Source: an uncultured Clostridia bacterium | GTDB lineage: Bacteria > Bacillota > Clostridia > Oscillospirales > Ruminococcaceae | Length of the DNA: 47,173 bases | Assembly: GCA_945829235.1 (NCBI GenBank) | Contig: CALZUA010000025.1 | Span: 1-47,173, forward strand | Reading direction: 5' to 3' | Shown here: positions 13,765 to 44,066 of the stretch, in pieces | Position numbering within the stretch: the stretch's first letter is position 1 | Layout of the letters: each line of letters opens with the position of its first letter | The notes under the pieces: model-generated | The model's database searches: none | What the model saw: only the letters and a program-made list of their open reading frames with translations | What the model was told of the DNA's origin: nothing | Position numbers and translations under genes: made by a program

Positions 13765-14727
13765 TCAGTATTTGCTGCTTCTCAATTTGTCGATTTCAAC
13801 TTTCTCGGGCATAACCCTGAGTGCGCCTCGTCTGCTTGTAATAATAGAAGCCGCAGCGTTTGCAAAATCAAGCAGTTCGGCAAGCTGCTCTTTATCCGGC
13901 ATAATTCCGTTTTCGCAGATATAATTCAGCGCACAGCCCATAAACGTATCCCCCGCTCCGGTTGTATCCACAACATTCGGATTATCGTAGGAAGGCGCTG
14001 ATACCAAGATACCGTCACAGTACGCTTTGCTGCCTTTTCTGCCCATTGTCGCCAGAACAAGCGAAACGCCAAATTCCTTGCGAATAGCGGCAACTCCCTT
14101 GTCGATATCCCTTTCGCCCGTGAAAAATTCGATTTCGTTATCGGATATTTTCAGAATATCACACACCGAAATGCCAAATTTCATAGCAACCTTCGCTTCG
14201 TCAAGGGACTTCCAAAGCGGCTCGCGGAGATTTGGGTCAAAGGATATCAGCGCGCCGCTTTCCTTTGCGGTGTTTATCGCTGAAACAGTAGCCGCTTTGT
14301 TGACTTCGTGTGTCATTGACAGCGTACCGAAGTGGAAGATTTTCGAGTTGCGTATTAAGTCTGTGTTCACATCGGCTTCCGATAGCATCATATCCGCTCC
14401 CGGTTCTCTGTAAAAGCTGAAATCCCTGTCGCCGTCGGGCTTTTTGTGAACAAAAGCAAGCGTTGTATGAACCTTGCTGTCAAATACAAGCCCCTCTGAA
14501 TCGATACCGCAGCCTTTTATCGTTTCAGCCAGTATTTCTCCGAAGCTGTCTTTTCCAACCTTTCCGATAAAAGCGGTTTTCCTGCCGAGCTTAGAGAGCA
14601 TTGCAAGAACGTTGCAGGGCGCGCCGCCGGGATTGGCTTCAAGCAAAGGATTTCCCTGTTCGCTTATTCCGTTCTCGGTAAAATCAATCAGCAGTTCTCC
14701 CAAAGCGACAACATCATATTTTTTCAT
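13765..14727 (-). CDS. Fructokinase, PfkB/ribokinase family
   Basis: 320 aa. Starts with the PfkB-type strand VVALGELLIDF, the first signature NPGGAPCNVLAMLSKLG (about 32-48) and ends with the second, VVDTTGAGDTFMG (about 250), whose Asp is the catalytic base. The sugar is inferred to be fructose from the operon: sucrose phosphorylase upstream releases free fructose, which this enzyme would turn into fructose 6-phosphate with ATP. It overlaps galT by 4 nt and has GGAGGGAAG as ribosome site. Confidence 0.88.
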   Translation of the reverse strand: MKKYDVVALGELLIDFTENGISEQGNPLLEANPGGAPCNVLAMLSKLGRKTAFIGKVGKDSFGEILAETIKGCGIDSEGLVFDSKVHTTLAFVHKKPDGDRDFSFYREPGADMMLSEADVNTDLIRNSKIFHFGTLSMTHEVNKAATVSAINTAKESGALISFDPNLREPLWKSLDEAKVAMKFGISVCDILKISDNEIEFFTGERDIDKGVAAIRKEFGVSLVLATMGRKGSKAYCDGILVSAPSYDNPNVVDTTGAGDTFMGCALNYICENGIMPDKEQLAELLDFANAAASIITSRRGALRVMPEKVEIDKLRSSKY

Positions 14728-16232
14728 ATCTTCCCTCCGATTGTCAGAGTGTGCAAAAAACTGTCAAAAGCCTGCCTTCCCGCTTCATTTCTCTTGAATA
14801 CGCCCGCGTCAAGCAGTACCTGTTCAAAAGCTCTGCCAACTTCTGCTCGAATAATTTCCGCAGCATTTTCTTTTGAAATATCGGGATTGTTTTGTACAAT
14901 TTCCCGTGCCCATTCTGCGTGACTTGCTGTTAGCGGATTAGCGGTAAGGTCTCTTCCCGTAATAAGTGCGTCCTCAACCGCTTTTAATTCCTCCGCAAGC
15001 CGTGACGGCAGAACCGCAAGTCCCATGACCTCAATCAGACCGATGTTTTCCTTTTTGATGTGGTGGAGCGAGGGATTGGGGTGAAAAACACCGAGCGGTC
15101 GCTCATCTGTTGTAATATTGTTTCGCAGAACAAGGTCGCACTCGTAAATACTGCCGTTTTTTCTTGCAATCGGTGTGATTGTGTTGTGAGGAATGCCGTC
15201 TGTTTCAGCGAAAATAAAAGCGCTTTCGTCCGTGTATCCGCGCCATTTTTCAAGAATGTAAGCACAGCACTCCGAAAGCTGTTTCCTATCCTCGGAAGTG
15301 ACGCGTATAACCGACATTGCCCATTTTACAATTCCCGCTTTAACCTTCGGATATTTTTCAAGAACAAACTCGGTTTCAATCGGTGCTTTCGCCATTGCAA
15401 AGGTGTAATTTCCGCCCTGAAAATGCTCGTGACTTAAAATCGAGCCGCCGACTATCGGCAAATCCGCGTTTGAACCAACAAAATAATGCGGCAAAAAATC
15501 CACAATATCAAACAGTTTTTCAAACACTGCGCTGTCGATTTTCATCGGAACGTGCTTTTCGTTGAACACAATACAATGCTCGTTGTAATAGCCGTAGGGC
15601 GAGTACTGAAACTGCCATTTTTCGCCGTTCACCGTAATCGGCACGGGGCGCAGATTTTGCCTTGCGGGGTGATTTATGTTTCCCGAAAAACCCGCATTTT
15701 CGGGGCAAAGCTGACACTTGGGATAAGCTGTTGTTTGCGCTGTTTTTGCCGCCGCAATATCCTTCGGGTCTTTTTCGGGTTTGGAACGGTTTATGGTGAT
15801 ATCCAGTGTGCCGTATTCGGATTCATAAGTCCACTTCAAGTCCTTTTCAATTCTGCCTTTGCGGACATAATTCAGCTTTTGGCTGAAATCAAAATACCAA
15901 TCCGTTGCGGCTTCGGGATTTTGCTTGTACCGCTTATTAAACTCGGCGATAACCTCTCTCGGCATAGGCGTGAGAATGCCCATAAGTTTAGTATCAAACA
16001 GGTCGCGGGAGTTTGCAGTGTCGCTGATTATCCCGTTTTCACATGCATACTCAATCAGCGGAGCGAGGATTTTATCAATGATTTCGCCGTTGTATTCTTC
16101 GACAGTTTCTTCCCAATCCGAAAGCTGAAACACCTCCATAAACCGATTTCGGATAACATAAATATCATCTTGTGTAATCAGCTCGTTTTTCAAAGCGTAG
16201 CTTATCAGCCGCTGAATATCATCATAAATCAT
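14724..16232 (-). CDS. galT: UDP-glucose--hexose-1-phosphate uridylyltransferase, class 2
   Basis: 502 aa, the long Firmicutes-type GalT without the HPH motif spacing of the E. coli enzyme. Typical segments: YPKCQLCPENAGFSGN (metal-site cysteines), QFQYSPYGYYNEHCIVF, DLPIVGGSILSHEHFQGG with the active-site histidines, and PHNTITPIARK. It transfers UMP from UDP-glucose to galactose 1-phosphate, the second Leloir step. It lies 12 nt after galE with AAGGAG as site and overlaps fructokinase. Most of its sequence is duplicated at 34701-36162, in a mosaic of identical and diverged blocks. Confidence 0.95.
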   Translation of the reverse strand: MIYDDIQRLISYALKNELITQDDIYVIRNRFMEVFQLSDWEETVEEYNGEIIDKILAPLIEYACENGIISDTANSRDLFDTKLMGILTPMPREVIAEFNKRYKQNPEAATDWYFDFSQKLNYVRKGRIEKDLKWTYESEYGTLDITINRSKPEKDPKDIAAAKTAQTTAYPKCQLCPENAGFSGNINHPARQNLRPVPITVNGEKWQFQYSPYGYYNEHCIVFNEKHVPMKIDSAVFEKLFDIVDFLPHYFVGSNADLPIVGGSILSHEHFQGGNYTFAMAKAPIETEFVLEKYPKVKAGIVKWAMSVIRVTSEDRKQLSECCAYILEKWRGYTDESAFIFAETDGIPHNTITPIARKNGSIYECDLVLRNNITTDERPLGVFHPNPSLHHIKKENIGLIEVMGLAVLPSRLAEELKAVEDALITGRDLTANPLTASHAEWAREIVQNNPDISKENAAEIIRAEVGRAFEQVLLDAGVFKRNEAGRQAFDSFLHTLTIGGKI

Positions 16233-16244
16233 AAACTCAACTCC

Positions 16245-17234
16245 TTACGCGTCATAGCCGTTCGGGTGATTTTTGTGCCATTTCCATGCACTTGCAATAA
16301 TTTCTTCAAGACTGTCGTGAACGGGCTTCCAGCCGAGAATTTTCTTCGCCTTTTCGCTCGAGGCAACAAGTCTTGCGGGGTCGCCTGCACGCCGTTCGGT
16401 TTCCACAGCGGGAATAGAATGTCCCGTAACCTTTCTTGCCGTTTCTATTACCTCTCTCACGGAATAGCCAACGCCGTTTCCCAGATTGAAAATATCGCTT
16501 TCGCCGCCGTTCATCAGATATTGAACTGCAAGTATATGCGCCTGAGCTAAATCTGTAACGTGAATGTAGTCGCGGATACAAGTTCCGTCGGGGGTATCGT
16601 AGTCCGTGCCATAAATAGAAATTGCCTCTCGCTTGCCGTTGGGGACTTGCAAAATCAGCGGGATAAGATGACTTTCGGGATTATGGGCTTCTCCGATTGT
16701 ACCGCTTTCGTCCGCTCCGCAAGCGTTGAAATACCGCAAGGAAACATAGCGCAACCCATGAGCGTTCGCCGTCCACTTGAACATCTTTTCCATAGCCAGC
16801 TTGGTTTCGCCGTAAGGATTGGTCGGACAGGTTCTGTCGGTTTCCAGAATCGGAATGTTCTCGGGCTCGCCGTAGGTTGCGGCAGTCGATGAGAACACGA
16901 TTTTTTTGACGTTGTTCTTCACCATCGACTCCAGCAAAACCTTTGTTCCGCAGAGATTGTTGTCGTAATATTTCAGCGGATTAGTAACGCTTTCGCCAAC
17001 CAGAGAAAAAGCCGCAAAATGAATAACAGCGTCAATTTGCTCCGAGCTGAACAGTTTATCCAGAAATTCAGCGTTACGGATATCGCCCTGATAAAATTTT
17101 GCTGCTTTCGGAACAGCGCTGCGGAAACCTGTTACAAGGTTATCCGCAACAATTACATCATGTCCCGCTTTTACAAGCTCCAATGCGGTATGAGAGCCGA
17201 TGTAGCCCGCGCCGCCCAATACCAAAATATTCAT
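16245..17234 (-). CDS. galE: UDP-glucose 4-epimerase
   Basis: 329 aa short-chain dehydrogenase. NAD-binding GGAGYIGSHTALEL at 7-20, catalytic Ser-Thr-Ala segment (FSSTAATYGEPE) and YxxxK in NPYGETKLAMEK, then SLRYFNACGAD and GTCIRDYIHVTDLA as in all GalE. It interconverts UDP-galactose and UDP-glucose, closing the Leloir cycle. It overlaps galK by 4 nt; GGAGGG is the ribosome site. Its last 93 codons recur as a fragment at 36175-36456. Confidence 0.96.
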   Translation of the reverse strand: MNILVLGGAGYIGSHTALELVKAGHDVIVADNLVTGFRSAVPKAAKFYQGDIRNAEFLDKLFSSEQIDAVIHFAAFSLVGESVTNPLKYYDNNLCGTKVLLESMVKNNVKKIVFSSTAATYGEPENIPILETDRTCPTNPYGETKLAMEKMFKWTANAHGLRYVSLRYFNACGADESGTIGEAHNPESHLIPLILQVPNGKREAISIYGTDYDTPDGTCIRDYIHVTDLAQAHILAVQYLMNGGESDIFNLGNGVGYSVREVIETARKVTGHSIPAVETERRAGDPARLVASSEKAKKILGWKPVHDSLEEIIASAWKWHKNHPNGYDA

Positions 17235-32257: not shown

Positions 32258-32384
32258 CTATTATCTTAAACTTTTTGCTTATTAGGTTGTAGTGCTACAA
32301 TAGAAAAAAGAATTAAAAGAAATACCAAAATCTGCTAGAATAAAGTTACCACACAAAATTCAAGTGAAAGAAGGTCAATCTCTC

Positions 32385-33146
32385 ATGGGTATTATAACAC
32401 AAGAAATGCGATTTCGTCAAGCCCTAATGAAATATTGTGAAAAGTATGGTGTAAACAACAAAAGCCGTTCATATATCTATTTTTGGAAGAAACTTTGGGA
32501 CGGAACGATTGAATCGCTTGCCGAACAGTCCAAGCGACCACACCACCATCCAAACGAGCACACGCCCGATGAACTTAAGCTCATCAAAGATATGCGGCGG
32601 CGAAACCCCAAACTTGGTCTTACGGAACTGTGGCACAGACTTCGCAAAAGGGGCTACACACGCCGCGTTGAGAGCCTCTACCGCGTTATAAAAAGGTTGG
32701 CTTTGCTTCCGCAAGCTCCAGCAAAGCCAACCTACAAGCCCAAGTCTTACAAGCAAATGACCTACCCGAGTGAGCGTGTTCAGATAGATATTAAATTTGT
32801 CCCGCTGCGGTGCCTTGTAAATAAAGAACAAAAGCTCCATCAATACACCGCAATCGATGAGTTCACGCGGCTTCGATTTATCTACGGCTACGAGGAACAC
32901 AACACTTATTCCTCGGCAGATTTTTTGAAGCGCGCTGTTGAATGGTACAAGCGGCGCGGAATTAAGGTTGAATGCGTTCAGACCGACAACGAGCCTGAGT
33001 TCACAACGCGGTTTATTCAAGGCTTAAAGGATAAGCCAACGCTGTTCCAGACAACTGCTTCGGCACTCGGTATCCGGCACAAGCTCATTCGATATCGGAC
33101 AAAAAACAAAATCATTCAGAGCAGTGATCATAAGGCTCTTGTATGA
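32385..33146 (+). pseudogene. IS481-like DDE transposase, 3' end lost
   Basis: Start at ATG 32385 with AGAAGG upstream. The N-terminal part has the helix-turn-helix region with an apparent internal loss (YGVNNKSRSYIYFWKK), followed by the family segment DGTIESLAEQSKRPHHHPN. The catalytic core shows YPSERVQIDIKFVP with the first Asp and CVQTDNEPEFTTRF with the second. Homology stops after LGIRHKLIR, where relatives continue with PYTPRHNGKVERSH carrying the catalytic Glu; here the frame runs into unrelated residues and stops. The end coincides with the left edge of the IS110-family element, so that insertion may have cut it. Confidence 0.85.
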
Positions 33147-33252
33147 TATAGTTGAGTACCATATCAAATCCTTTCATAAGATTTACGCTCATCTCCGAAG
33201 TGAAGGAACTGTTCAAATTTTCGGCGAAAACCGACGAAATGTTGCTGAAATG

Positions 33253-33448
33253 TGGTATAATTAGCTTGAACACCGTGGACTTTTTATTGTGCCTTGCCGC
33301 AGGACGGCTAGATGGAGTTTATTGCCACGATTTTATTCAAGATGTTTATAGCTGGATAAAGCCCGTTCAGGTGACTTTTCATTTCACGCAAGGATACGCG
33401 GATAAAATCAAGTGGACAAGCGGTGCTACTTTTTTCGAGGTGATTACT
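33253..33448 (+). ncRNA. Candidate bridge-RNA region of the IS110-family element
   Basis: In IS110-group elements the non-coding left end before the transposase encodes a bridge RNA of roughly 180 nt that pairs with target and donor DNA. Here about 300 nt of non-coding DNA (33147-33448) precede the transposase start, and an extended -10 box (TGG-TATAAT, about 33254-33262) lies about 190 nt before the start codon with no good -35, as expected when the -35 is supplied by the joined right end of the circular form. I did not fold the RNA; the boundaries are estimates. Confidence 0.35.
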
Positions 33449-34727
33449 ATGATTTTTGTTGGAATTGATGTTGCTAAAGACACGCACTATGCCGCCGTTT
33501 CAGACGATTCGGGAGCAGTACTCGTCAAGCCGTTTGCGTTTCAGAACAACGCCGAGGGCTTCTGTCTTTTGCTCAAAAAGCTGTCGGAATTTGACCGTAG
33601 CGAGCTACTTATCGGACTTGAATCCACAGGTATATATTCGGAAAATCTGATATATTTCCTAAACGATTCCGGTTACAAGCTTGCTGTCATCAACCCTATT
33701 CAGACAGCCACTCTTCGCAAAACCAAAACAGACAAGGTTGACACTATGCTGATTATCAAATCGCTGATGGTCAATTCTTATCAACTGTATTCTCATCGTG
33801 ATGCCGATTCTGTTAAGCTGAGAACACTATGCCGTTTTCGTCAGAATCTCAAAAAGTCCAAGACGCGACTGAAAATACAGCTTGCAGGATATGTCAATCT
33901 TGTTTTCCCCGAATTCGGTAAGTTCTTCAAATCCGGAATACATATCGTTGCTTCCTATGCTTTGCTTAAGAAGTATTCTTCACCCTAGGAGATTGCCGCC
34001 GAAATTCAATGCCGTCAGGCATTGAATTTGTGGACAATCAACTTTGTCCACTCTTCTCTCAAAGGTGTCGCGTGGGCGCTTTGGAAAAGATACAGCCGAA
34101 GCTCTAAAAAGTCTGGCTCTCTCCTCAGTCGGGGTGAAGAACCCTTTTATATCCATTCAAATAGCCCAAACCATTGCGCAGATTGAGCTATTGGAACAGC
34201 AAATTAAAGACCTGAATTCTGCCATCGAGGAAGCGATGGAATCCATCAATTCCGTCCTTATGACAGTTCACGGTATCGATGCGGTCAATGCCGCCTGCAT
34301 TCTTGGTGAAAACGGCGATATAAGTCGTTTTTCTAAACCGTGCAAGCTACTTGCCTATGCCGGTCTTGACCCCACCGTTCGCCAATCCGGGCAGTTCACT
34401 GCGAAATCTACCCGTATGTCCAAGTGTGGTTCTGCCTTGCTTCGCTATGCTCTTATCAATTCCGCTTGGCAACTCACGCTGAATGACCCAATCTTCAAAG
34501 CTTATTATGACCTTAAACGCTCTCAGGGACTTAACCATTACGGCGCTCTTGGTCATGTTGCTCACAAGCTCACCAGAGTTATTTTTAAGCTCTTGACTTC
34601 TGATACTCCATCATCCCTGCCAAACTTGTCGCCTAATTTTTGTCAGTTTTGTCTATTGACTCTTCATAGCTGGTCTCCATCGGTAAGCATATTAACAAAT
34701 CTGTCAAAAGCCTGCCATTTCTCTTGA
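33449..34727 (+). pseudogene. IS110-family transposase, disrupted by a stop and a 28-nt insertion
   Basis: Start at ATG 33449 (GAGGTG upstream). The N-terminal RuvC-like DEDD domain is complete: GIDVAKD (Asp7), LIGLESTGIY (Glu58) and KTDKVD (Asp95, Asp98). The C-terminal Transposase_20 domain is also there (MTVHGIDAVNAACILGE, LLAYAGLDPTVRQSGQ with the conserved Ser). Between them, TAG at 33986-33988 (YSSP-stop-EIAA) and a 28-nt hairpin at 34002-34029 break the frame; removing the 28 nt restores it as EIAAGGQSTLSTLLSK. The last codons after about 34620 run into galT-like DNA (34701 on), so the right end of the element lies between. Confidence 0.88.
34002..34051. repeat. Two adjacent perfect hairpins inside the IS110 transposase gene
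   Basis: Hairpin A: 12-bp arms AAATTCAATGCC / GGCATTGAATTT with loop GTCA (34002-34029). Hairpin B directly follows: 8-bp arms GTGGACAA / TTGTCCAC with a 6-nt loop (34030-34051). Hairpin A has exactly the length whose removal restores the transposase reading frame. Confidence 0.9.
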
Positions 34728-36162
34728 ATACGCCTGCGTCAAGCAGTACCTGTTCAAAAGCTCTGCCAACTTCTGCTCGAATAATTTCCGCAGCATTTTC
34801 TTTTGAAATATCGGGATTGTTTTGTACAATTTCCCGTGCCCATTCTGCGTGACTTGCTGTTAGCGGATTAGCGGTAAGGTCTCTTCCCGTAATAAGTGCG
34901 TCCTCAACCGCTTTTAATTCCTCCGCAAGCCGTGACGGCAGAACCGCAAGTCCCATAACCTCAATCAGACCGATGTTTTCCTTTTTTATGTGGTGCAGAG
35001 AGGGGTTCGGGTGAAACAGTCCCAGCGGGCGCTCATCTGTTGTAATATTGTTTCGCAGAACAAGGTCGCACTCGTAAATACTGACGTTTTTTCTTGCAAT
35101 AGGCGTGATTGTGTTGTGGGGAATACCGTTTGTTTCAGCGAAAATATAGGCGCTCTTGTCCGAATAACCGCGCCATTTTTCAAGAATGTAAGCGCAGCAC
35201 TCCGAGAGTTGTTTTCTGTCCTCGGAAGTGACGCGTATAACCGACATTGCCCATTTTACAATTCCCGCTTTAACCTTCGGATATTTTTCAAGAACAAACT
35301 CGGTTTCAATCGGTGCTTTCGCCATTGCAAAGGTGTAATTTCCGCCCTGAAAATGCTCGTGACTTAAAATCGAGCCGCCGACTATCGGCAAATCCGCGTT
35401 TGAACCAACAAAATAATGCGGCAAAAAATCCACAATATCAAACAGTTTTTCAAACACTGCGCTGTCGATTTTCATCGGAACGTGCTTTTCGTTGAACACA
35501 ATACAATGCTCGTTGTAATAGCCGTAGGGCGAGTACTGAAACTGCCATTTTTCGCCGTTCACCGTAATCGGCACGGGGCGCAGATTTTGCCTTGCGGGGT
35601 GATTTATGTTTCCCGAAAAACCCGCATTTTCGGGGCAAAGCTGACACTTGGGATAAGCTGTTGTTTGCGCTGTTTTTGCCGCCGCAATATCCTTCGGGTC
35701 TTTTTCGGGTTTGGAACGGTTTATGGTGATATCCAGTGTGCCGTATTCGGATTCATAAGTCCACTTCAAGTCCTTTTCAATTCTGCCTTTGCGGACATAA
35801 TTCAGCTTTTGGCTGAAATCAAAATACCAATCCGTTGCGGCTTCGGGCGATTGTTCATAATTCCGGCGAAATTCGGCTGTTACCTCTCTCGGCATCGGCG
35901 TGAGAATGCCCATAAGCCTTGTATCAAACAGGTCGCGGGAGTTTGCGGTATCGCTGATTATCCCGTTTTCACAAGCATACTCAATCAGCGGAGCGAGGAT
36001 TTCATCAATGGTTTCGCCGTTGTATCCTTCGACAGTTTCTTCCCAATTCGAAAGCTGAAACTCCTCCATAAACCGATTGCGAATGACATAAATATCATCA
36101 GAAGCTATCAACTCATTTTTCAAAGCGTAGCTTATCAGCCGCTGAATATCATCATAAATCAT
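34633..36162 (-). CDS. galT: Second galT copy with altered C-terminus
   Basis: 509 aa; start, ribosome site AAGGAG and almost the whole protein match the operon galT at 14724-16232. The final part differs: a 10-nt deletion (TTCCCGCTTC present near 14777, absent near 34717) shifts the frame after VFKRN, so the natural tail NEAGRQAFDSFLHTLTIGGKI is replaced by one ending in IDKTDKN read from IS110-flanking DNA. The active-site segments (QLCPENAGFSGN, SILSHEHFQGG) are intact, so activity cannot be excluded. No promoter is visible, because the galE copy in front is only a fragment. Some diverged stretches carry amino-acid changes (GYTDESAF to GYSDKSAY). Confidence 0.85.
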   Translation of the reverse strand: MIYDDIQRLISYALKNELIASDDIYVIRNRFMEEFQLSNWEETVEGYNGETIDEILAPLIEYACENGIISDTANSRDLFDTRLMGILTPMPREVTAEFRRNYEQSPEAATDWYFDFSQKLNYVRKGRIEKDLKWTYESEYGTLDITINRSKPEKDPKDIAAAKTAQTTAYPKCQLCPENAGFSGNINHPARQNLRPVPITVNGEKWQFQYSPYGYYNEHCIVFNEKHVPMKIDSAVFEKLFDIVDFLPHYFVGSNADLPIVGGSILSHEHFQGGNYTFAMAKAPIETEFVLEKYPKVKAGIVKWAMSVIRVTSEDRKQLSECCAYILEKWRGYSDKSAYIFAETNGIPHNTITPIARKNVSIYECDLVLRNNITTDERPLGLFHPNPSLHHIKKENIGLIEVMGLAVLPSRLAEELKAVEDALITGRDLTANPLTASHAEWAREIVQNNPDISKENAAEIIRAEVGRAFEQVLLDAGVFKRNGRLLTDLLICLPMETSYEESIDKTDKN

Positions 36163-36456
36163 AAACTCAACTCCTTACGCGTCATAGCCGTTCGGGTGAT
36201 TTTTGTGCCATTTCCATGCACTTGCAATAATTTCTTCAAGACTGTCGTGAACGGGCTTCCAGCCGAGAATTTTCTTCGCCTTTTCGCTCGAGGCAACAAG
36301 TCTTGCGGGGTCGCCTGCACGCCGTTCGGTTTCCACAGCGGGAATAGAATGTCCCGTAACCTTTCTTGCCGTTTCTATTACCTCTCTCACGGAATAGCCA
36401 ACGCCGTTTCCAAGATTGAAAATATCGCTTTCGCCGCCGTTCATCAGATGTTGAAC
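34701..36456 (-). repeat. Segmental duplication of galT-galE' (source 14761-16526)
   Basis: Direct repeat about 19.9 kb apart, same strand, colinear apart from the 10-nt gap. Blocks with no or almost no differences (14787-15026, 15291-15917, 16190-16526 and their partners at +19930) alternate with clearly diverged blocks (15027-15290, 15918-16189). Confidence 0.92.
36175..36456 (-). pseudogene. galE 3' fragment
   Basis: The last 93 codons of galE (from QHLMNGGESDIFNLGNGVGYS to the stop), differing at only a few bases from 16245-16526. Upstream of 36456 the homology ends abruptly. The 31 codons that extend the frame further are unrelated and there is no GalE N-terminus, so it cannot bind NAD. 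It keeps the 12-nt spacing to galT seen in the operon. Confidence 0.9.
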
Positions 36457-36494
36457 ATACCAAACGGAACAAGGGGCAACCGGTAATTCGACAC

Positions 36495-36542
36495 AAAAAC
36501 TCTCGGATATTCCGCAGATTAGCGAGGTATCCGAGAGTTTTT
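36495..36542. terminator. Strong bidirectional hairpin terminator
   Basis: 15-nt perfect arms AAAAACTCTCGGATA / TATCCGAGAGTTTTT with an 18-nt loop, so it ends in a T-run on both strands. It sits just beyond the break of the galE fragment, in a 527-nt stretch (36457-36983) that otherwise holds no gene I can support, only short open frames without ribosome sites and a second, weaker hairpin (AGAGCG/CGCTCT, 36843-36878) that may end the lipoprotein gene on its right. Confidence 0.75.
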
Positions 36543-36983
36543 CCTTTGACATATTGTTTGATATAGAGTAGGTTGAAAAATGTGATACAGCAATCTGCTT
36601 ATTGCATATTGAAAAATGGAGAGATTATCATGCGTTATGAGCAGAACGACAAGGTTCGTCCAGCTTATGGATTTACTTCCTTGTGGTGATATATTTAGCG
36701 CCTTGCAGTTATCAAGTTGTGGGTATTATATTGTGTTTGCTATTTCAAAATCTGATTTTTCATGTTCTCTCCTTGTCGTCGAAGGACGGTTACGGAATAG
36801 ATCCGTACAATATGTAGTCTGAAAGCACTTCGACATAAAGAAAGAGCGTCCGGAAAGCTTTTGCCTGCTGAGCGCTCTAAAACTGTGCCGGAGTATGCCG
36901 TCCTGCCGCCTATTCTTTTTCGGGCTGCATACCACCGTCACTGTTCTAACCTATAAGCTCTTATTATATCTGCTGTTTGGTGA

Positions 36984-37589
36984 TTAACGATACTCAAAAG
37001 AGATTACGCAAGAAGGGATTGCGTTTTCCGGATTTGAGCTGTCTGTGGCAAAGGGGTTTACTTCAAGGTAAATACCGATCTTCTTTCCTTTATATAAGTA
37101 TTCGCCGTCAAGCATCATTCTGTCATTTCGTTCTTCGTCCCACCCGTTTTCCTTATTGGTCACGAACTCTTCCGTCCACCGGTCGTTGCCGGGCTTCAGC
37201 TTACCGGAATTATTCACAACACCGTCATCGGATATGGATTCCAAATGATTAAGTATTTTTTTAAGCCAAGCATTCATATTATCTGTCCCCAAAAGACTGT
37301 ATACGAAAACACCGACTTTAGTAACATTCCCGGCATCATCATAGCTTAAGGCGTCAACACGGATAACGTTAGCGCATTCCACCTTTGTTGTCGTAAATCC
37401 GAATGTGTTCAGATAGCCCTCGACGGTTGTGGTATCTGCATTTTCGATGATGTCGGAAGAATTTTGATCTGTCTGAACCGAACTTGACGATTTGCCGGTA
37501 CTTTGGCTCGGCTTTTTTTCGTCTTCACCGCAGCCGGTAAGGGAAAGCGCCATAATTGCTGCAAGTGTGAGTGCAATAAACTTTTTCAT
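36984..37589 (-). CDS. Lipoprotein of unknown function
   Basis: 201 aa with GGAGG before the start. Lipoprotein signal with lipobox LSLTGC (Cys at about 20), a Ser/Gln-rich linker to about 50, then a 150-residue mixed alpha/beta domain (VEGYLNTFGFTTTKVECANV, GVFVYSLLGTDNMNAWLKKIL, IPSCVISFEYR) that I do not recognise. It lies 209 nt after the 1080-aa secreted-protein gene on the same strand and may belong to that locus. The gap between them (37590-37798) carries no complete gene; one frame of about 40 codons is open but has no start signal. Confidence 0.8.
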   Translation of the reverse strand: MKKFIALTLAAIMALSLTGCGEDEKKPSQSTGKSSSSVQTDQNSSDIIENADTTTVEGYLNTFGFTTTKVECANVIRVDALSYDDAGNVTKVGVFVYSLLGTDNMNAWLKKILNHLESISDDGVVNNSGKLKPGNDRWTEEFVTNKENGWDEERNDRMMLDGEYLYKGKKIGIYLEVNPFATDSSNPENAIPSCVISFEYR

Positions 37590-37798
37590 AGTGTACCTCC
37601 AAAATTTTATTTACATACTCTGCTCTCCGTCGATTATGCGGTTTGCAGAGGTGCGCTCGTTAATACGGGAAGCAGGGGCGGCATTGGCACAACATGGGTA
37701 GTTAGCTTCTGTTGTACTAATTCAATAAGACCTGCAATGCATTTATCCAAAGCAGCACCGCACAAACCGAGAGTGCAGCTGCGCGGCGCTGCCTCAAA

Positions 37799-40700
37799 TC
37801 ATATTCCCTCAGGCAACGGCGGATCTTTCGGAACATTTATGGGAGCAGGCGCCGCAGGCGGGTCGCCGAAAATCGTTTTTATCAGGTAGGCTCCCAACGG
37901 ACACATCAAAGTACCGAATGTTTCAAGCGTTTTGAGGATATCAAGCTTGAGCTTGAATTTCTCCTCGCCCAAGGTGATGGTCGTTGAGAAATAGAAGCGT
38001 CCTTCATCGGTGATGAAGCCATCAACATCCACCGCTTCGTCAATCATCTCGGATACCTTGCCCGCACCAACGCCGACCAGCTCGGTCACATATTTATCCA
38101 GAATGTCGGTCAGAGCAAGAGACGCTGCTTCGTTAGCGCCTTTCAGGGCGAGGTCTCCGTACAGCTCCTGCCAGCGGTTGTATTGAGCCTGTAAGTTGGG
38201 GAACTGTGTTTCCTTGAAGTAATTCGTAATAAACGGAGCGATTTTCGTCCGGAAGATGTCGCTCTTTTCAATCCATTTTCCGAGAAGCTTGCTTGCGCCC
38301 GCCTTGACGCAATTTATGGTCATATCCGAGAATCCGCCGACAAGCGCGCCCCATAGATCGCTGACGCCTTCCTCATTCCATTTGACCATATAGTTTTTGA
38401 AGGACGCATAAACGAAATAGCAGCCGAGGGTCGCCAGTGCCTTTTTGTAATTCGTAAAGCTGATAGCGTTGCCGAAAATGTTATCGCCTGCTGCCGCCAC
38501 ATTCTTTGAAAACTCAAAATTGTCGAAGGTTTCCAGCGTGAATTTATCCGCGGCGATTATCTCACCGATCGCGCCTACAAAGAAGTCCTTGGCGGGAGAA
38601 ATAACAGCGTCGGCAAGCGGACCTGCATAGACTGTTATCAGCAGGGAGAATGCGCAGTCTCCGAAGAATTTTGCCCACTCCAGAGAGCTTACCATAAAGT
38701 CGTAGAACTTCACATCGCGCATATCCGCATTTCTCTGGCGCGTCCAATAGGTCATATATCTTCTGACAAGGCACTTGCTCACAAGCCTGAGTTCCTCGAT
38801 AGAAACACGCGGTTCAAGTGCGAGGTCATCGAGCTTCTGAATCCAGTATTCCTTATCCTCCTCAAAGGAGAACTTCCGAATACGCTCTTTGAGCTTCTCG
38901 TATTCCTTATCCCATTCCTCCATCGGGTCCATTGGAACGCCCCTCAGGCGAAGCGGTACATCTGCGGTGAACGTTTGTCCGTTATAGCTGATCGAAACGG
39001 GAAGAAGCATCATCATTTTGAAGCCCTGAACCCCGTAGCCGCCCTCATAAAGAGTAGTGTTCGGCTCAAAGTAATAGGTGTGTTGATCGCCATTTTGCAT
39101 TATATCTTCGGAGTATTTATACTTTCGGGCGATAACGTCCATATTTTCGTCTGCGCCCCTAAGGTTTTGCACCTCAATTTCTAAATTCGGGGGATTGATG
39201 ACCGCACCCTCGGCTTCCATTACGGCAAGGTTGAACTTGATATCGGAGCTTTGCCACTTGCTGTCAAGCCCGCCGTAGGTGCCCTTTTCCTTTTCGTAGG
39301 AACGCACCGAAACATACCTGAGATTTGGCTGACTGTTGTCCGTCTGAAGCACTCTCGATTCAACCGAGATTCCCTCGGGATAAAGCGTAACATCCACATA
39401 GCCTTCGGTCGGCTCTGCTTCGCCCTCAACCATAACCGAAACGGTGAGTTCCCTTTCTTCTTTCTTGTTGAAAATATCCCAGTGTGGATCGTTTCCGCCC
39501 GGGTCGCTTGTTCTGTTCGTGATCTGTACGTCATAGACGCCCGGCGTTTCCGTTTCCTCAAAGCTAAGGTCAAAGTCGCTCGCCTCGCTGACGGAAAATG
39601 CGTCCGGCGCAGGGAAAGTAACAGCGTCCTTCAGCCACAAGCGCCGCGTATATGTAAAACCATCGCCGAAAATAGCGTCAAGCCTGCAAGTTCCCCCGCT
39701 GTAAACGCCGTTTTCGTCGAGGAACAGAATTTTCGGATCGCCAATGGCGCGGAAGCGGACGGTGTTGTTAAAGGTGCCGCCCTCGCCCGTAAAGGTAAAG
39801 GTTATGTCAGCAGTCTCTCCCTCATAGTCTTTGGGAATGCCGACAAGCGCCTCGCAGTATCTGCCGAGATTCACGGCACGGTGGATTTCCATTCCGCCGC
39901 CCGAAACGTAGTTTATCTGCGCGGTAAGGTCGTTTCGATCGCGCTCGGTTCCATCCTCGCTCACCTCGGCTATTCTGGCTCGCACCGCAACGGGGTTTGC
40001 GCCCTTTCGAATGGAGTTTCCGAAATCCTTTTGGATATACATTTTGTAGCGCTTCTTTCTGCGCTCGTCCTCGCCGATTTCGCCGCCGTCTGTACCGACA
40101 GACGAGCCTGCCGAGCCTGCCGCAGCTGAGCCTGCTGCAGCCGCACCCGCCGTAGTTGCTGCGCCTGCGCCCAGTACGCCGACCGATCCCACCACGATGG
40201 CAGCGGGAATATTTACGCCGCTGTCCTCGCCGGAGTTTATGTCGGCATTCTGCGTAATGCCGTCACTTGCAATGCCGATGTCAGTGCCGCCGGGGGCAAC
40301 GCCCGGCGCAGTACCGTTCACATTTTTCATCCAATGTCCTTCTTGCCATAAAACGTTCTGTCTATCTTCAAATTTCCTGTGTGTCGGACTGCTACCATCA
40401 CTATCAGTCCTTGTATAGGAACGTTTCTCAACAAACTGATAATAAATGAGACCATACATCTCTACATTATCATCACTAACATTAATGTGTAAAAAGTTAT
40501 TATTATCATTGGATAAGGCTGGCTTTGAAATTATGTAGTCATTTTCATTTGAATACTCGGTGGTATATTCAGAACGGACTTCGGTTTCCTTAAACCTCTC
40601 GTGGATAGTGCCCGTTACAGTGAAGTCTTTTTTTGTTGTCTTTTCCGGAATCTGTGCGCTCACTTCAATCGAATAGTCAAAGTAATGCACCTCATTAGGT

Positions 40701-41041
40701 TCTTCACTTCTATCGGTAACGGTTATTGAACCCGAAGTATTCCCCGATACATTGCCGTTTTCGTCCACTTTAAGTACTATATGATTAATCGCATAATCCA
40801 TAACAAAATCAGTTAAGGCATATCCCTTTTTTTCTGTTGCTTCCAATTCCGCTTTCCAATATTCATCCGCACTGCTGTATCCTTGAGCGATATGTACTTC
40901 CGGTGTATATGTGCCGGCAATGCTTTTATGGAAATCTTCATTTTCATCAGCTCCTTCGGCTCTCGCCGTTAAAGCGGTGAACGGCAAAATATATGCCGAC
41001 AGCATAAAGACAAGCAAAAATCTCGCAAATATTCTTTTCAT
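37799..41041 (-). CDS. Large secreted multi-region protein of unknown function
   Basis: 1080 aa from ATG 41041; GGAGG lies 7 nt upstream, and the stop of the preceding gene overlaps the start (TGATG). Residues 1-29 are a signal peptide (FLLVFMLSAYILPFTALTARA). Region 2 (30-270) is beta-rich with Thr/Ser/Glu. Residues about 278-315 are a hydrophobic Gly/Ala stretch (IPAAIVVGSVGVLGAGAAT) that could insert in a membrane. Region 3 (330-690) looks like several Ig-like beta domains. Region 4 (700-1080) is alpha-helical (KLKERIRKFSFEEDKEYWIQ) with hydrophobic parts (FSLLITVYAGPLADAVISPA), and the end is Pro-rich. The layout recalls large exported effectors or adhesins, but I recognise no family. Confidence 0.75.
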   Translation of the reverse strand: MKRIFARFLLVFMLSAYILPFTALTARAEGADENEDFHKSIAGTYTPEVHIAQGYSSADEYWKAELEATEKKGYALTDFVMDYAINHIVLKVDENGNVSGNTSGSITVTDRSEEPNEVHYFDYSIEVSAQIPEKTTKKDFTVTGTIHERFKETEVRSEYTTEYSNENDYIISKPALSNDNNNFLHINVSDDNVEMYGLIYYQFVEKRSYTRTDSDGSSPTHRKFEDRQNVLWQEGHWMKNVNGTAPGVAPGGTDIGIASDGITQNADINSGEDSGVNIPAAIVVGSVGVLGAGAATTAGAAAAGSAAAGSAGSSVGTDGGEIGEDERRKKRYKMYIQKDFGNSIRKGANPVAVRARIAEVSEDGTERDRNDLTAQINYVSGGGMEIHRAVNLGRYCEALVGIPKDYEGETADITFTFTGEGGTFNNTVRFRAIGDPKILFLDENGVYSGGTCRLDAIFGDGFTYTRRLWLKDAVTFPAPDAFSVSEASDFDLSFEETETPGVYDVQITNRTSDPGGNDPHWDIFNKKEERELTVSVMVEGEAEPTEGYVDVTLYPEGISVESRVLQTDNSQPNLRYVSVRSYEKEKGTYGGLDSKWQSSDIKFNLAVMEAEGAVINPPNLEIEVQNLRGADENMDVIARKYKYSEDIMQNGDQHTYYFEPNTTLYEGGYGVQGFKMMMLLPVSISYNGQTFTADVPLRLRGVPMDPMEEWDKEYEKLKERIRKFSFEEDKEYWIQKLDDLALEPRVSIEELRLVSKCLVRRYMTYWTRQRNADMRDVKFYDFMVSSLEWAKFFGDCAFSLLITVYAGPLADAVISPAKDFFVGAIGEIIAADKFTLETFDNFEFSKNVAAAGDNIFGNAISFTNYKKALATLGCYFVYASFKNYMVKWNEEGVSDLWGALVGGFSDMTINCVKAGASKLLGKWIEKSDIFRTKIAPFITNYFKETQFPNLQAQYNRWQELYGDLALKGANEAASLALTDILDKYVTELVGVGAGKVSEMIDEAVDVDGFITDEGRFYFSTTITLGEEKFKLKLDILKTLETFGTLMCPLGAYLIKTIFGDPPAAPAPINVPKDPPLPEGI

Positions 41042-42351
41042 CACTGTGCCTCCTTCTTTGACTTGATTACGCCTGCTTTCTGCAGTATCATCAGTATAAT
41101 GCCTGCTACCATCAAGACCGCACCTGCAATGATATGTACCAGCATTATCCTTATCTGTCCGAGTGCCGCCGCGCCTGCAAAGCCGACGGTCAGACCCTTG
41201 ATAATACCCGCTGCGCCCTGCCCTAAGGCTGCCTTGCCCTTAGACGTAAACGAGCCGAGTAGGTTCTGCAAAAAGCCCCTGTTAAGACACGCTTTTGCGC
41301 TGAGAAACGCTGCCGCAATGCCTGCCATAAAGCCCGATTTTAGCATACCGCCCGAAACGAACAGGTATATAAACATTGCCGCGCCGATACCCGTGAGATA
41401 CCCACCGAGAGAATCAAGCGACACGCCAAAAACGCCGCTGAAAGTCTCCTTAAGCGACCGTTTTTGCCCTTTGTTTTTCCGAAACAGCGAGTTTATCAGC
41501 GTCACCAACGCACCGGCGAATATTCCCTTGCCGAAAATGCCGCCTATAAATCCCGATACGCTTCCCGACATTCCACCTTTTGCAAAGGTCAGAAACGACA
41601 GCACCTGCGTTGGCACAACATCAATTTTAAGCACCTGTAAAATATCAAGCGCAAGCCACACAGCCGCCAGAATAAGCGGAATGATAAGCTTTTTCGGGTT
41701 CTTAAAAGCGGATTTCAAAGAAACGAAAAACCGCTTGAAGCTCCCCAGCAATACTGTTCCCGTACCGGGGATAAGGCTTGCTGCCGCGCCTATCGGGTTG
41801 CCGAATGAGCCTAGCACTGTCTCGCCGCAGGCGGAGGGCGCAAACTGCCCCGCGAATGTCCCGACAGCCCTTGATACCGCTGTTCTTGCTGTTGATACTG
41901 CCATTCCGCCTATATTTTGCGGTGCTGACTGTACTTGCGGTGCTGGCTGTACCTGTCTCGGCTGCATTTGCTGCGCTGGCTGTACCTGTCTGGGCAGTGT
42001 TTGCGGCGCTGACTGCACCTGTCTCGGCTGCATTTGCGGCGTTGGCTGTACCTGTATTGGCGGCATTTGCTGCGCTGGCTGTACCTGTCTGGGTTGCATT
42101 TGCGGTACTGGCTGTGCTTGTCTGGGCTGCATTTGAGGTACTGGCTGTACCTGTCTTGGCATTTGAGGAGCTGACTGTACCTGTCTCGATATTTGAGGCG
42201 CTGACTGTACCTGTCTGGGTTGCATTTGCGGCGACGGCTGTACTTGTCTCGGCAGATTCGATTGCTCTACAGGTATCTGTTTTCCGCAGACGGTGCAAAA
42301 CCGATATCCCTCCTCTAATGGGCTTCCGCAGTATCTGCAAAATTTCGCCAT
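41041..42351 (-). CDS. Zinc-ribbon membrane protein with Pro/Gln repeat linker
   Basis: 436 aa. Residues 5-22 are a zinc ribbon (Cys5, Cys8, Cys19, Cys22: CRYCGSPLEEGYRFCTVC). Residues about 30-135 are eleven or so copies of an 11-residue unit PRQVQPAPQMQ. The rest is a membrane domain with about five to six helices (KKLIIPLILAAVWLALDIL, GIGAAMFIYLFVSGGMLKSG, IIAGAVLMVAGIILMILQ) and many Gly/Ala. It is first in a two-gene unit with the 1080-aa secreted protein, whose start overlaps its stop, so they probably work together, for example as membrane partner and exported protein. AAGGAGGAA precedes the start. The leader has a hairpin TTGCTGCG/CGCAGCAA (42400-42422) and a -10 box at 42457-42452. 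Confidence 0.8.
   Translation of the reverse strand: MAKFCRYCGSPLEEGYRFCTVCGKQIPVEQSNLPRQVQPSPQMQPRQVQSAPQISRQVQSAPQMPRQVQPVPQMQPRQAQPVPQMQPRQVQPAQQMPPIQVQPTPQMQPRQVQSAPQTLPRQVQPAQQMQPRQVQPAPQVQSAPQNIGGMAVSTARTAVSRAVGTFAGQFAPSACGETVLGSFGNPIGAAASLIPGTGTVLLGSFKRFFVSLKSAFKNPKKLIIPLILAAVWLALDILQVLKIDVVPTQVLSFLTFAKGGMSGSVSGFIGGIFGKGIFAGALVTLINSLFRKNKGQKRSLKETFSGVFGVSLDSLGGYLTGIGAAMFIYLFVSGGMLKSGFMAGIAAAFLSAKACLNRGFLQNLLGSFTSKGKAALGQGAAGIIKGLTVGFAGAAALGQIRIMLVHIIAGAVLMVAGIILMILQKAGVIKSKKEAQ
41930..42265 (-). repeat. 33-nt tandem repeat coding the Pro/Gln linker
   Basis: About eleven imperfect copies of a 33-nt unit. On the plus strand the unit reads as a Cys-rich peptide pattern (CTCLGCIC), creating a long antisense open frame with no start signal, which I take as a by-product of the repeat. 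Confidence 0.85.
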
Positions 42352-42499
42352 ATTAATTCCTCCTTGATTAATGCCGCATAAATGTTCAGCTTTCTAAAAT
42401 TGCTGCGTTTCGTTCGCAGCAACGGGTGATGTATTCTGTATAATTGATTTAATTATAACAATATTTTGAGAAAAATTCTATACATTCTGAAATTTGGTC

Positions 42500-42517
42500 G
42501 TGCCAAATTTTTGGCAC
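42500..42517. promoter_or_regulatory. Palindromic operator candidate in the divergent region
   Basis: GTGCCAAA-TT-TTTGGCAC, 8-bp perfect arms, 19 nt before the -35 box of the plus-strand gene. Extra half-sites TTTGG (42493) and TGCCAAAA (42524) flank it, giving up to four half-sites between the two divergent genes. Confidence 0.6.
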
Positions 42518-42535
42518 ACTTTATGCCAAAATCTG

Positions 42536-42564
42536 TTGACATTTAAATGTAAGTGATGTATAAT
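42536..42564 (+). promoter_or_regulatory. Consensus promoter of the divergent regulator-like gene
   Basis: TTGACA (42536-42541), 17 nt, TATAAT (42559-42564), a perfect sigma-A consensus about 60 nt before the proposed TTG start. Confidence 0.88.
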
Positions 42565-42629
42565 ATAACCGGATGTACTTTGCAAAACTGCGGAGCATAG
42601 CCCGAACAATAATATATGGAGGAATAGTT

Positions 42630-44066
42630 TTGTTTGCAGAACGATTTGACGCGCTGATGAATATCGCCGAGGTTTCCAACAGTCTCCTCGGCAGAGATAT
42701 AAACATGAATCCCGCCCACATCGGGAGATTACGCTCGGGAGCAAGATCGTTAGCAAAAAAGCACGATTATCTGCCGGCGGTATGTACCTACCTTGTCAAG
42801 CATATAACAAAGGAATATCAGATGAATGCGCTGCAAAAACTGACCGGTATTCCCGCATCTGCGCTTTCTCGGGCAGATGCAGCTGCGGTGTATCTTGAGC
42901 GTTGGCTTATCGAAGAAGAAAGGGACGCAGCGTCTGTGGCAAAGCGGCTTATTTCCGGGTTTTCCCGTGTTGCCGCAAGACCCGTTATTCACACGACCGA
43001 TGAATCTATGACCGAAGTACCTATGAATTACTTCTCATATCTTTACGGAAATGCCGGAAAGAGAAAAGCGGTCGAGCAGTTTTTTTATACGATTTTGCAG
43101 GAAAACACACCGCAGACACTTCTGCTTTTCTCTGATGAAAATATGGCATGGCTTTATGAAGACGCCGCCTTTGCCGCACAATGGGCTGAATTATTCAAGA
43201 AGGTTATTGAACGAGGAAACCGCGTTAAGATTATCCACACAATCACCCGCGACATCAACGATATGTTTGAGGCAATCGCAAAATGGATACCCATTTACAT
43301 GACAGGGGCTGTTGAGCCGTATTTTTATCCGAAACTGCGCGATGGGCTTTTTCAGCGGACGCTGTTCATTGCGCCTGATACGGCTGCGGTCATTTCGTCC
43401 TCGGTGCAACAGGACACCGACGGTATGCTAAATATGTTTATCACGGATAAATCCGCTCTCGATGCGCTGAAAATCGAATACGAGCACTATTTGTCGCTTT
43501 GCCGTCCGCTGATGCGCATTTTGACCGAACAAACCCCCGAGGACATTCTGAAAGCGTTTGAAAATCTTGCGTCTGCTGAGGAGGACGCTTTCATCTACTC
43601 TGCAATGCCGCCGATTTTCACTATGCCGGAAAGCGTTATCGAGGAGTTCGCGAAAAAACACAACGCCGATATGCTGATTTCGGCTTGGAAAAGGGCGGCT
43701 GAAATATTCCGCAGTGATATTACAAATCATCGGATTTGTATGACTTTGCTTGACCCGGAGCTTGCTTTGCTCACGCCGGATACGCTTTATCCGCCTATGG
43801 CGGGATTGTTTTGCGCCTCCGATTTTGTTTACACAATGGAACAATACATAGCGACTATTGAGCATATACGGCATTTGGAAAAGGAATATGAAAATGTGAC
43901 CGTCAAATTCTCGGATAATGTCGAGAACAACACTATGATTTATGTTAAGGAAGATGTCGGTGTGTTTATGGCGAAGACCGATTCACCGATTACGGTATTT
44001 ACCATCAGTGAAAGAAATATGACAGGCTCTTTTGGGGATTATATGAAAAACAGCTTGTTTATTTAA
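42630..44066 (+). CDS. Regulator-like protein with N-terminal HTH-like region, TTG start
   Basis: 478 aa. The start is set at TTG 42630, because GGAGG lies 7 nt before it, while ATG 42573 has no site and is almost on top of the promoter. Residues about 15-65 (EVSNSLLGRDINMNPAHIGRLRSGARSL, split here as seen) resemble a helix-turn-helix used by XRE-like regulators. The remaining 400 residues have a fold I do not recognise; segments such as RGNRVKIIHTITRDINDMF and MLISAWKRAAEIFRSDI recall ligand- or nucleotide-sensing domains. It is divergent from the zinc-ribbon/secreted-protein operon with a palindrome between, so it is the likely regulator of that operon. A weak start codon behind a perfect promoter would keep its level low. 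Confidence 0.7.
   Translation: MFAERFDALMNIAEVSNSLLGRDINMNPAHIGRLRSGARSLAKKHDYLPAVCTYLVKHITKEYQMNALQKLTGIPASALSRADAAAVYLERWLIEEERDAASVAKRLISGFSRVAARPVIHTTDESMTEVPMNYFSYLYGNAGKRKAVEQFFYTILQENTPQTLLLFSDENMAWLYEDAAFAAQWAELFKKVIERGNRVKIIHTITRDINDMFEAIAKWIPIYMTGAVEPYFYPKLRDGLFQRTLFIAPDTAAVISSSVQQDTDGMLNMFITDKSALDALKIEYEHYLSLCRPLMRILTEQTPEDILKAFENLASAEEDAFIYSAMPPIFTMPESVIEEFAKKHNADMLISAWKRAAEIFRSDITNHRICMTLLDPELALLTPDTLYPPMAGLFCASDFVYTMEQYIATIEHIRHLEKEYENVTVKFSDNVENNTMIYVKEDVGVFMAKTDSPITVFTISERNMTGSFGDYMKNSLFI

What the first reader, a model, noticed from the sequence alone, without database searches (positions are those of the whole stretch)
36984..44066. Unrecognised locus: exported 1080-aa protein, zinc-ribbon membrane partner, divergent regulator, lipoprotein
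Two genes overlap (TGATG) and pair a zinc-ribbon/PQ-linker multi-helix membrane protein with a very large exported protein holding a Gly/Ala membrane-like stretch, Ig-like regions and a helical C-terminal third. A regulator-like gene is transcribed away from them with a palindrome between, and a lipoprotein follows. None matches a system I can name. A surface or export machine, or a toxin-like effector with its membrane partner, would fit. Seen: gene layout, motifs, overlap. Inference: that they form one system.
Basis: partly seen in the sequence, partly recalled or inferred. Interest (0 to 1): 0.78.

Follow-up and report, generated by a model that had tools for sequence, protein, structure and literature searches.

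The report
Unnamed zinc-ribbon membrane protein pair
Two overlapping genes of an uncultured Clostridia bacterium make an undescribed membrane protein pair that recurs, rarely and patchily, in related bacteria, with an outer part that can be exchanged and, in some genomes, a probable DNA-binding regulator beside it; what it does is still unknown.

Summary
The layout is real. The zinc-ribbon gene (ZNR) and the 1080-aa gene (BIG) are one conserved unit. Among 394 genomes of the order, all 11 with a confident BIG match carry the ZNR membrane domain, itself found in only 13. Of 34 ZNR-domain genes not cut by a contig end, 28 have a BIG-like partner as the next gene, usually overlapping by 1-4 nt, 5 are fused to one, 1 has neither. 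Partners share a signal-peptide-like start, outer region and hydrophobic segment, then differ: BIG type, RHS repeats, others. One partner is a chimera joined at that segment. The divergent gene is an HTH regulator found in only some of these genomes; a probable operator lies in the gap, and a palindrome like those before other REG genes precedes ZNR-domain genes on other contigs in two genomes. The lipoprotein is not conserved. Pfam, NCBIfam and PADLOC know neither core beyond the zinc ribbon. Best reading, moderate confidence: a membrane recognition complex with an exchangeable outer domain.

The parts
37799..41041 (-). BIG, 1080 aa: signal-peptide-like start, variable outer domain, Gly/Ala hydrophobic segment, conserved core and C-terminal part
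   Evidence: ORF; profiles and neighbours; dN/dS
40211..40960 (-). BIG residues 28-277, outer domain: poorly conserved, exported-like amino-acid composition (0.96)
   Evidence: exchange of the corresponding region seen in L131
40154..40210 (-). BIG residues 278-296, start of the Gly/Ala hydrophobic (probable membrane) segment; acidic before, weakly basic after (net +1)
37802..40153 (-). BIG residues 297-1080: rest of the segment, conserved core (YKMYVxKDFGD consensus) and C-terminal part ending near KDPPLP; holds a second hydrophobic stretch at residues 796-814; no Pfam family
41041..42351 (-). ZNR, 436 aa: zinc ribbon, Pro/Gln linker, Gly-rich multi-helix membrane domain
42277..42342 (-). zinc ribbon of ZNR (residues 4-25)
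   Evidence: PF13240 E 2.6e-6, above cut-off
41053..41739 (-). membrane domain of ZNR (residues 205-433), the family-defining part
42630..44066 (+). REG, divergent HTH regulator, 478 aa from TTG (listed ORF starts at 42573)
42512..42528 (.). probable REG operator TGGCA-N7-TGCCA (arms extend to TTTTGGCA/TGCCAAAA)
42536..42564 (+). promoter-like site for REG, TTGACA-17-TATAAT, 12 of 12 consensus bases
42452..42457 (-). possible -10 hexamer (TATAAT) for ZNR-BIG without a listed -35; weak
36984..37589 (-). lipoprotein, 201 aa; probably not part of the conserved unit
   Evidence: no homolog beyond its signal peptide in the mapped loci; nothing like it recurs downstream of partners

Best explanation
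ZNR and BIG form one membrane complex. Shown: the two genes occur together, lie in overlapping frames and are sometimes fused. Shown: partners of ZNR share a signal-peptide-like start, an outer region and a hydrophobic segment, followed by several kinds of C-terminal part; one natural chimera has exchanged the outer domain at that segment. Inferred: ZNR sits in the membrane with its zinc ribbon inside; BIG's outer domain recognises something variable outside the cell; the signal passes through the Gly-rich helices to BIG's C-terminal part, which I place inside the cell with modest confidence. Inferred from palindromes: REG binds the gap and controls its own gene and ZNR-BIG. So it would be a surface recognition or envelope-sensing complex with an exchangeable outer domain.
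For: Co-occurrence: 11 of 11 confident BIG genomes have the ZNR domain, which 13 of 394 have (hypergeometric 1e-19, ignoring kinship). Adjacency: 33 of 34 uncut ZNR-domain genes have a next-gene or fused partner. Chimera: L131 partner residues 78-317 are 59% identical to L103, 313-704 are 60% identical to L132. Outer domains score exported-like, median 0.94 of 25. Charge: net acidic before and net basic after the segment in 12 of 17 BIG-core proteins (counted). In L140 a hydrophobic stretch and the Gly/Ala segment are almost adjacent with the core behind, which would bring the core back inside. REG: HTH_3 in 10 of 16 members; TTGTCAnTGACAA (up to 1 mismatch) before 9 of 25 REG genes and, in two genomes, before ZNR-domain genes on other contigs than REG.
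Against: No experiment and no structure. BIG has a further hydrophobic stretch at residues 796-814 (score 1.74 against 1.78 for the Gly/Ala segment); if it spans the membrane, the topology changes. The C-terminal part has ambiguous composition (median 0.57 of 26; the window's 0.62). After the segment the window's own charge is only +1, and 8 of the 11 partners without a BIG core are not net basic there. Cysteine does not decide: C-parts of 14 BIG-type proteins 0.97% against 1.02% exported-like and 1.68% cytosol-like. RHS repeats in one partner fit a secreted or toxin protein better than a sensor. Only 11 of 32 ZNR-domain genomes have a confident REG. In the window genome the palindrome's two other sites are not by zinc-ribbon genes, and TGGCA-N7-TGCCA shows no genome-wide excess (39 against 58 control sites in 14 genomes).
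Confidence: 0.4

Rival explanations
1. Polymorphic-effector system: BIG-like proteins are secreted or surface-displayed effectors with exchangeable C-terminal parts, and ZNR is their dedicated membrane partner for export or anchoring.
For: Several C-terminal types behind the same ZNR domain: RHS repeats in L100 (PF05593 6.4e-86), Tcp10_C-like repeats in L134 (PF07202 2.3e-8, 34 bits against a cut-off of 36), an HExxH stretch in L135 seen by eye. Patchy spread. A LuxR-type regulator is 67-83% identical among five genomes of different families or classes, which suggests transfer.
Against: No conserved immunity gene: of 30 partner genes, 9 with at least 1.8 kb of sequence beyond them have no same-strand ORF within 400 nt, and among the downstream ORFs found only one genus (L137-L139) and one lipoprotein (L103/L131) clearly recur, apart from short zinc-ribbon matches and one weak match. 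The BIG C-terminal part is conserved, and the demonstrated exchange is of the outer domain. No toxin family for BIG in Pfam, NCBIfam or PADLOC.
Confidence: 0.25
2. Structural cell-surface assembly: BIG is an adhesin or wall-associated scaffold anchored by ZNR.
For: Signal-peptide-like start, exported-like outer domain, surface-type neighbours in some loci (SLH/Big_2 protein in L102; leucine-rich repeat proteins beside REG in L062 and L071).
Against: Pfam and NCBIfam find no wall-binding domain in BIG; a dedicated regulator and a zinc ribbon are not needed for an adhesin.
Confidence: 0.2
3. Two unrelated genes that happen to be neighbours, with a common HTH regulator beside them.
For: One BIG (L045) and one ZNR-domain gene (L098) lack the expected neighbour; lipoprotein not conserved.
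Against: Co-occurrence, conserved overlap and fusions.
Confidence: 0.03

Closest known systems
Polymorphic toxin systems (Zhang et al. 2012, PMC3482391; 11 passages seen)
   Same: Modular exported proteins with exchangeable parts; here one RHS-repeat member; patchy spread
   Different: No conserved downstream immunity gene found here; exchange shown for the outer domain; the passages seen do not mention a multi-helix zinc-ribbon partner
TcaA-type zinc-ribbon membrane proteins of Firmicutes (recalled; two searches gave no text on it)
   Same: N-terminal zinc ribbon, membrane anchor, exported domain
   Different: ZNR has several Gly-rich membrane helices and the exported domain is a separate overlapping gene, or a fusion behind those helices
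Lipocone two-gene system with a single-TM zinc-ribbon or HTH protein (PMC12419801; 4 passages seen)
   Same: Zinc-ribbon membrane protein coded beside a second gene
   Different: That partner is a Lipocone domain protein and the zinc-ribbon protein has one helix; no such family matched here
XRE/Cro-C1 type HTH regulators (Pfam HTH_3, HTH_31)
   Same: REG relatives carry one or two such HTH domains
   Different: Long C-terminal part with only HTH families matched in Pfam for 16 relatives and no clear PDB-sequence match

Membership tests
ZNR-BIG module (family defined here) | ZNR membrane-domain gene directly followed by, or fused to, a protein with signal-like start, outer region and hydrophobic segment | tested here: met
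   33 of 34 uncut ZNR-domain genes, including the window
Polymorphic toxin system | immunity gene just downstream of the toxin gene | tested here: not met
   30 partner genes examined; 9 with at least 1.8 kb beyond them have no same-strand ORF of 70 aa within 400 nt, no conserved downstream ORF otherwise
Polymorphic toxin system | hypervariable C-terminal toxin domain behind a conserved N-terminal part | tested here: inconclusive
   within BIG the C-terminal part is conserved and the N-terminal part varies, but other ZNR partners have other C-terminal parts
Polymorphic toxin system | toxic activity | not testable with these tools
   needs an experiment
TcaA-type protein (recalled) | zinc ribbon followed by a single membrane helix and an exported domain in one protein | tested here: not met
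   hydropathy of ZNR gives four strong helices and the alignment suggests six; the definition itself is recalled
Known anti-phage defence system | match to a PADLOC model | tested here: not met
   no match for ZNR or BIG at E 0.1; REG only one at E 0.039 over residues 24-84
XRE-type HTH regulator (REG) | HTH domain match | tested here: met
   HTH_3 in 10 of 16 aligned relatives; the window protein itself has none but aligns with them over the HTH
XRE-type HTH regulator (REG) | binding to a palindromic operator in its own promoter region | tested here: inconclusive
   palindromes present; binding itself not tested

The most novel reading that the evidence does not exclude
ZNR and its partners are a new class of transmembrane recognition-effector machine in Bacillota: a constant zinc-ribbon multi-helix core, a swappable outer recognition domain and one of several output parts (BIG type, RHS repeats, others) held on the inside of the membrane until the outer domain is engaged, with expression set in some lineages by a dedicated HTH regulator.
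Probability: 0.2. Interest if true: 0.85.

Novelty: new variant of a known kind. Interest (0 to 1): 0.55.

Why it matters
Two protein families that Pfam, NCBIfam and PADLOC do not know beyond the zinc ribbon form a rare but repeatedly found membrane module in Clostridia and kin. An exchanged outer domain and varied C-terminal parts on a constant membrane partner look like a recognition or conflict system that I found nowhere described in the papers I could search, and a predicted regulator-operator pair makes it testable at once. Zinc-ribbon membrane proteins recur in these loci without known function; this gives one group of them partners and a predicted regulator.

Tried and rejected
Known-family searches gave only zinc-ribbon and HTH matches above cut-off for ZNR, BIG and REG and their relatives, apart from the RHS and other parts named in the report; GrlR hits of BIG (E 0.09 and 0.82) were judged chance. 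Mobile-element origin: BIG has no match in the phage and plasmid collections and no pattern match in viral contigs; the ZNR domain has none in plasmids, REG none in phages; other combinations were not run. Lipoprotein as part of the unit: rejected. Two BIG genome hits near the threshold (G335, G403; E 4.1e-4 and 9.0e-4) were not counted; their loci show no BIG profile match. Left out of the 35-gene ZNR list (E above 1e-10 or partial): second hits in G363, G920 and G938, and the hits in G262 (contig edge; counted in the 13 of 394) and G1015. Zinc-ribbon genes within 4 kb of REG: 9 of 25 against 20 of 99 control genes of the same loci, not convincing alone. TTGTCAnTGACAA genome-wide: 6 exact sites in G476 against 0 control, but in the other 14 REG genomes searched 9 sites against 10 control, and one site each in 7 of 15 genomes without a confident REG. 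TGGCA-N7-TGCCA genome-wide: no excess. Cysteine content and composition for topology: inconclusive for the C-terminal part. Literature: seven searches; five listed nothing, two listed one paper each (PMC12419801, passages seen; PMC1687195, listing only); none describes this pair in what I saw. The library lacks most subscription journals.

Full report
What was checked. The four genes exist as described. ZNR (42351-41041, minus) ends in TGATG, in which its stop and the start of BIG (41041-37799, minus, 1080 aa) share one base. The divergent gene REG is on the plus strand; the listed ORF starts at 42573, but a TTG at 42630 with GGAGG in front is the likelier start, and relatives begin there. A promoter-like site with 12 of 12 consensus bases lies at 42536-42564. 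The gap holds TTTTGGCA-N7-TGCCAAAA. The lipoprotein follows BIG after 209 bases.

Known families. Pfam gives ZNR only a zinc ribbon and gives BIG, REG and the lipoprotein nothing above cut-off. NCBIfam has nothing above cut-off for the four, PADLOC nothing for ZNR and BIG at E 0.1. A PDB-sequence search gives BIG one hit at E 0.82 alone and none as a profile, and ZNR only weak matches, the named ones mostly zinc-ribbon proteins. PHROGs, asked for the REG alignment only, gives mostly transcriptional-regulator families and a few unnamed ones. Of 16 REG relatives 10 match HTH_3.

Distribution. BIG was found in 3 of 197 genomes of the family and 13 of 394 of the order, two of these near the threshold and not confirmed by profile. 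The ZNR membrane domain, searched without the zinc ribbon, was found in 13 of 394 of the order, 5 of 299 of the phylum and 14 of 391 of the class with a wider model, one of those at E 8.5e-4; each count includes the window's own genome. All 11 confident BIG genomes of the order are among the 13 (G262 by a short stretch at a contig edge); the two others (G325, G363) have the domain without a recognised BIG. The chance of this overlap is 1e-19 by a hypergeometric test that ignores kinship. No relatives of BIG were found in the phage and plasmid collections, and no pattern match in viral contigs.

Adjacency. I mapped ORFs in the fetched loci and listed 35 ZNR-domain genes at E 1e-10. One is cut by a contig end. 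Of the other 34, 28 have a partner as the next gene, most overlapping by 4 bases, the window and L102 by 1, L123 by 11; L135 has a gap of 5. Several partners are themselves cut by a contig end behind their start (for example L041, L070, L095, L123). Five ZNR-domain genes are fused to the partner in one ORF: L066, L137, L138, L139, L140; L137-L139 are one genus, and of these I read L137 and L138. One (L098) has neither. The reverse exception is L045, a BIG without a ZNR neighbour in a genome that has a second, paired copy. In G527 the pair is split over two contigs whose ends carry the same letters.

Partner anatomy. Partners have a signal-peptide-like start, an outer region and a hydrophobic segment that is rich in small residues or aliphatic, then differ: BIG type; a BIG core with about 970 other residues behind it (L054, L055); a BIG core with an HExxH stretch seen by eye (L135); a group with WxxFDxxGDI and a helical-looking rest (L096, L117, L131, L132, L133, the cut L070, and more distantly the fused L066); RHS repeats in L100, whose outer region is only about 49 residues; Tcp10_C-like repeats in L134, 34 bits against a cut-off of 36. 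In L140 almost no outer region is left. In L131 residues 78-317 are 59% identical to the L103 partner and residues 313-704 are 60% identical to L132 (336-700: 66% to L133), so the outer domain was exchanged at the segment. On a tree of 33 ZNR domains the BIG label needs 5 changes, fewer than in any of 500 shuffles (mean 11.4), so partner type mostly follows descent; four long branches (L140, L042, L066, L137) make deep parts unsure, and L137 and L140 may join falsely. BIG is under purifying selection: dN 0.09, dS 0.39 against L004. Of 30 partner genes examined for what follows them, 9 with at least 1.8 kb of sequence beyond have no same-strand ORF within 400 nt, and the only clear recurring downstream genes are those of one genus (L137-L139) and a lipoprotein shared by L103 and L131.

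Topology. Hydropathy finds, after the signal-like start of BIG, the Gly/Ala segment (residues 278-296, score 1.78) and a second stretch at 796-814 (1.74), and four strong helices in ZNR; I count six in ZNR from the alignment. In 12 of 17 BIG-core proteins the Gly/Ala segment has net acidic residues before and net basic ones behind it, in the window only +1 behind (counted), which favours an outer domain outside and a core inside; 8 of the 11 other partners of that call are not net basic behind it. In L140 a hydrophobic stretch and the Gly/Ala segment stand almost side by side with the core behind, which fits the same reading. A composition classifier trained on 29 exported-like and 154 cytosol-like ORFs of these loci (cross-validated AUC 0.97) scores outer domains exported-like, median 0.94 of 25, but C-terminal parts 0.57 of 26, the window's 0.62. 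Cysteine content does not decide. The topology of the C-terminal part is therefore inferred, not shown.

Regulation. REG is divergent beside the ZNR domain in the window, G037, G043, G021 and G526. It was found in 16 of 194 genomes of the family, in one of them over residues 21-105 only. Among genomes with the ZNR domain it is confident in 7 of 20 and 4 of 12; the window's own genome and G021 were in that set because they hold REG; the further hits are short stretches over the HTH. In five other genomes a LuxR-type gene, 67-83% identical among them, lies upstream of the ZNR-domain gene. By eye I picked two palindromes from REG upstream regions and then counted them. TTGTCAnTGACAA with at most one mismatch precedes 9 of 25 REG genes; among 492 other genes of the loci it precedes 8, of which four share the gap with REG, three are ZNR-domain genes of two genomes on other contigs than REG (L052, L054), and one shares the gap with such a gene. 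Three of the nine (L041, L061, L095) were among those used to pick it; L154 and L155 are one genus. TGGCA-N7-TGCCA is exact before 3 of 25 (window, L058, L135), the first two of which were used to pick it; the only exact control hit among 492 is ZNR of the window, in the same gap, and 6 more controls have one mismatch. In G476 the first palindrome occurs 6 times in the genome against 0 for its reversed control: before REG, before ZNR-BIG, before another zinc-ribbon gene (Pfam), before an AbrB-like gene (label recalled), and twice inside genes. The other 14 REG genomes searched have 9 sites against 10 control sites, and 7 of 15 genomes without a confident REG have one each, so a genome-wide set of sites is seen in G476 alone. 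In the window genome the second palindrome has two other sites, neither by a zinc-ribbon gene, and over 14 genomes it shows no excess. So control of ZNR genes by REG is well supported in sequence for the first palindrome in two genomes, and for the window by one site.

What it most likely is. A membrane complex of two proteins with an exchangeable outer domain, a constant zinc-ribbon membrane partner, and, in some lineages, its own HTH regulator. I commit to surface recognition or envelope sensing as the most likely role (0.40), with an exported effector system (0.25) and an adhesin-like assembly (0.2) as rivals. That ZNR and BIG belong together is close to certain; that REG controls them is likely; what the complex senses or does is inference.

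Novelty. I file it under modular, domain-exchanging surface systems in general as a new variant, and as a member of no named family: the one downstream-immunity test of polymorphic toxin systems was not met, the C-terminal test is inconclusive, and recalled TcaA-type proteins differ in helix number. Two papers were seen in passages only (PMC12419801; PMC3482391); neither describes this pair there. Seven literature searches found no description, in a library without most subscription journals.

Noticed in passing
window 14724-16232 and 34633-36162; 16245-17234 and 36175-36552: A second galactose-1-phosphate uridylyltransferase gene, 94% identical over 493 residues to the first, with a 101-residue remnant of its neighbour gene at 92%, lies about 20 kb away beside transposase genes: a segmental duplication.
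   Followed up: partly
window 32364-34727: Integrase-core ORF and an IS110-type transposase in two ORFs (Pfam rve, DEDD_Tnp_IS110, Transposase_20) next to the duplicated galactose gene.
   Followed up: partly
L135 11121-14491 and L141 4693-8937: A weak ZNR-domain relative is followed in two genomes by related proteins (53% identical; SPASM match in the L135 one only) and a protein beginning with a FVTNSSST motif: a possible peptide-modification locus.
   Followed up: partly
L065, L069, L098, L050, L061: Other zinc-ribbon membrane proteins with related outer domains lie near REG or near BIG or ZNR-domain genes.
   Followed up: partly
L103 442-1026 and L131 1125-1715: A lipoprotein (DUF4352 match in L103), 62% identical between two distant genomes, lies downstream of the partner gene in both.
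   Followed up: partly
L096, L102, L103, L131, L133: LuxR-type regulator of about 470 aa (Pfam tested for L103), 67-83% identical in five genomes of different families or classes, upstream of ZNR-domain modules: suggests horizontal transfer.
   Followed up: partly
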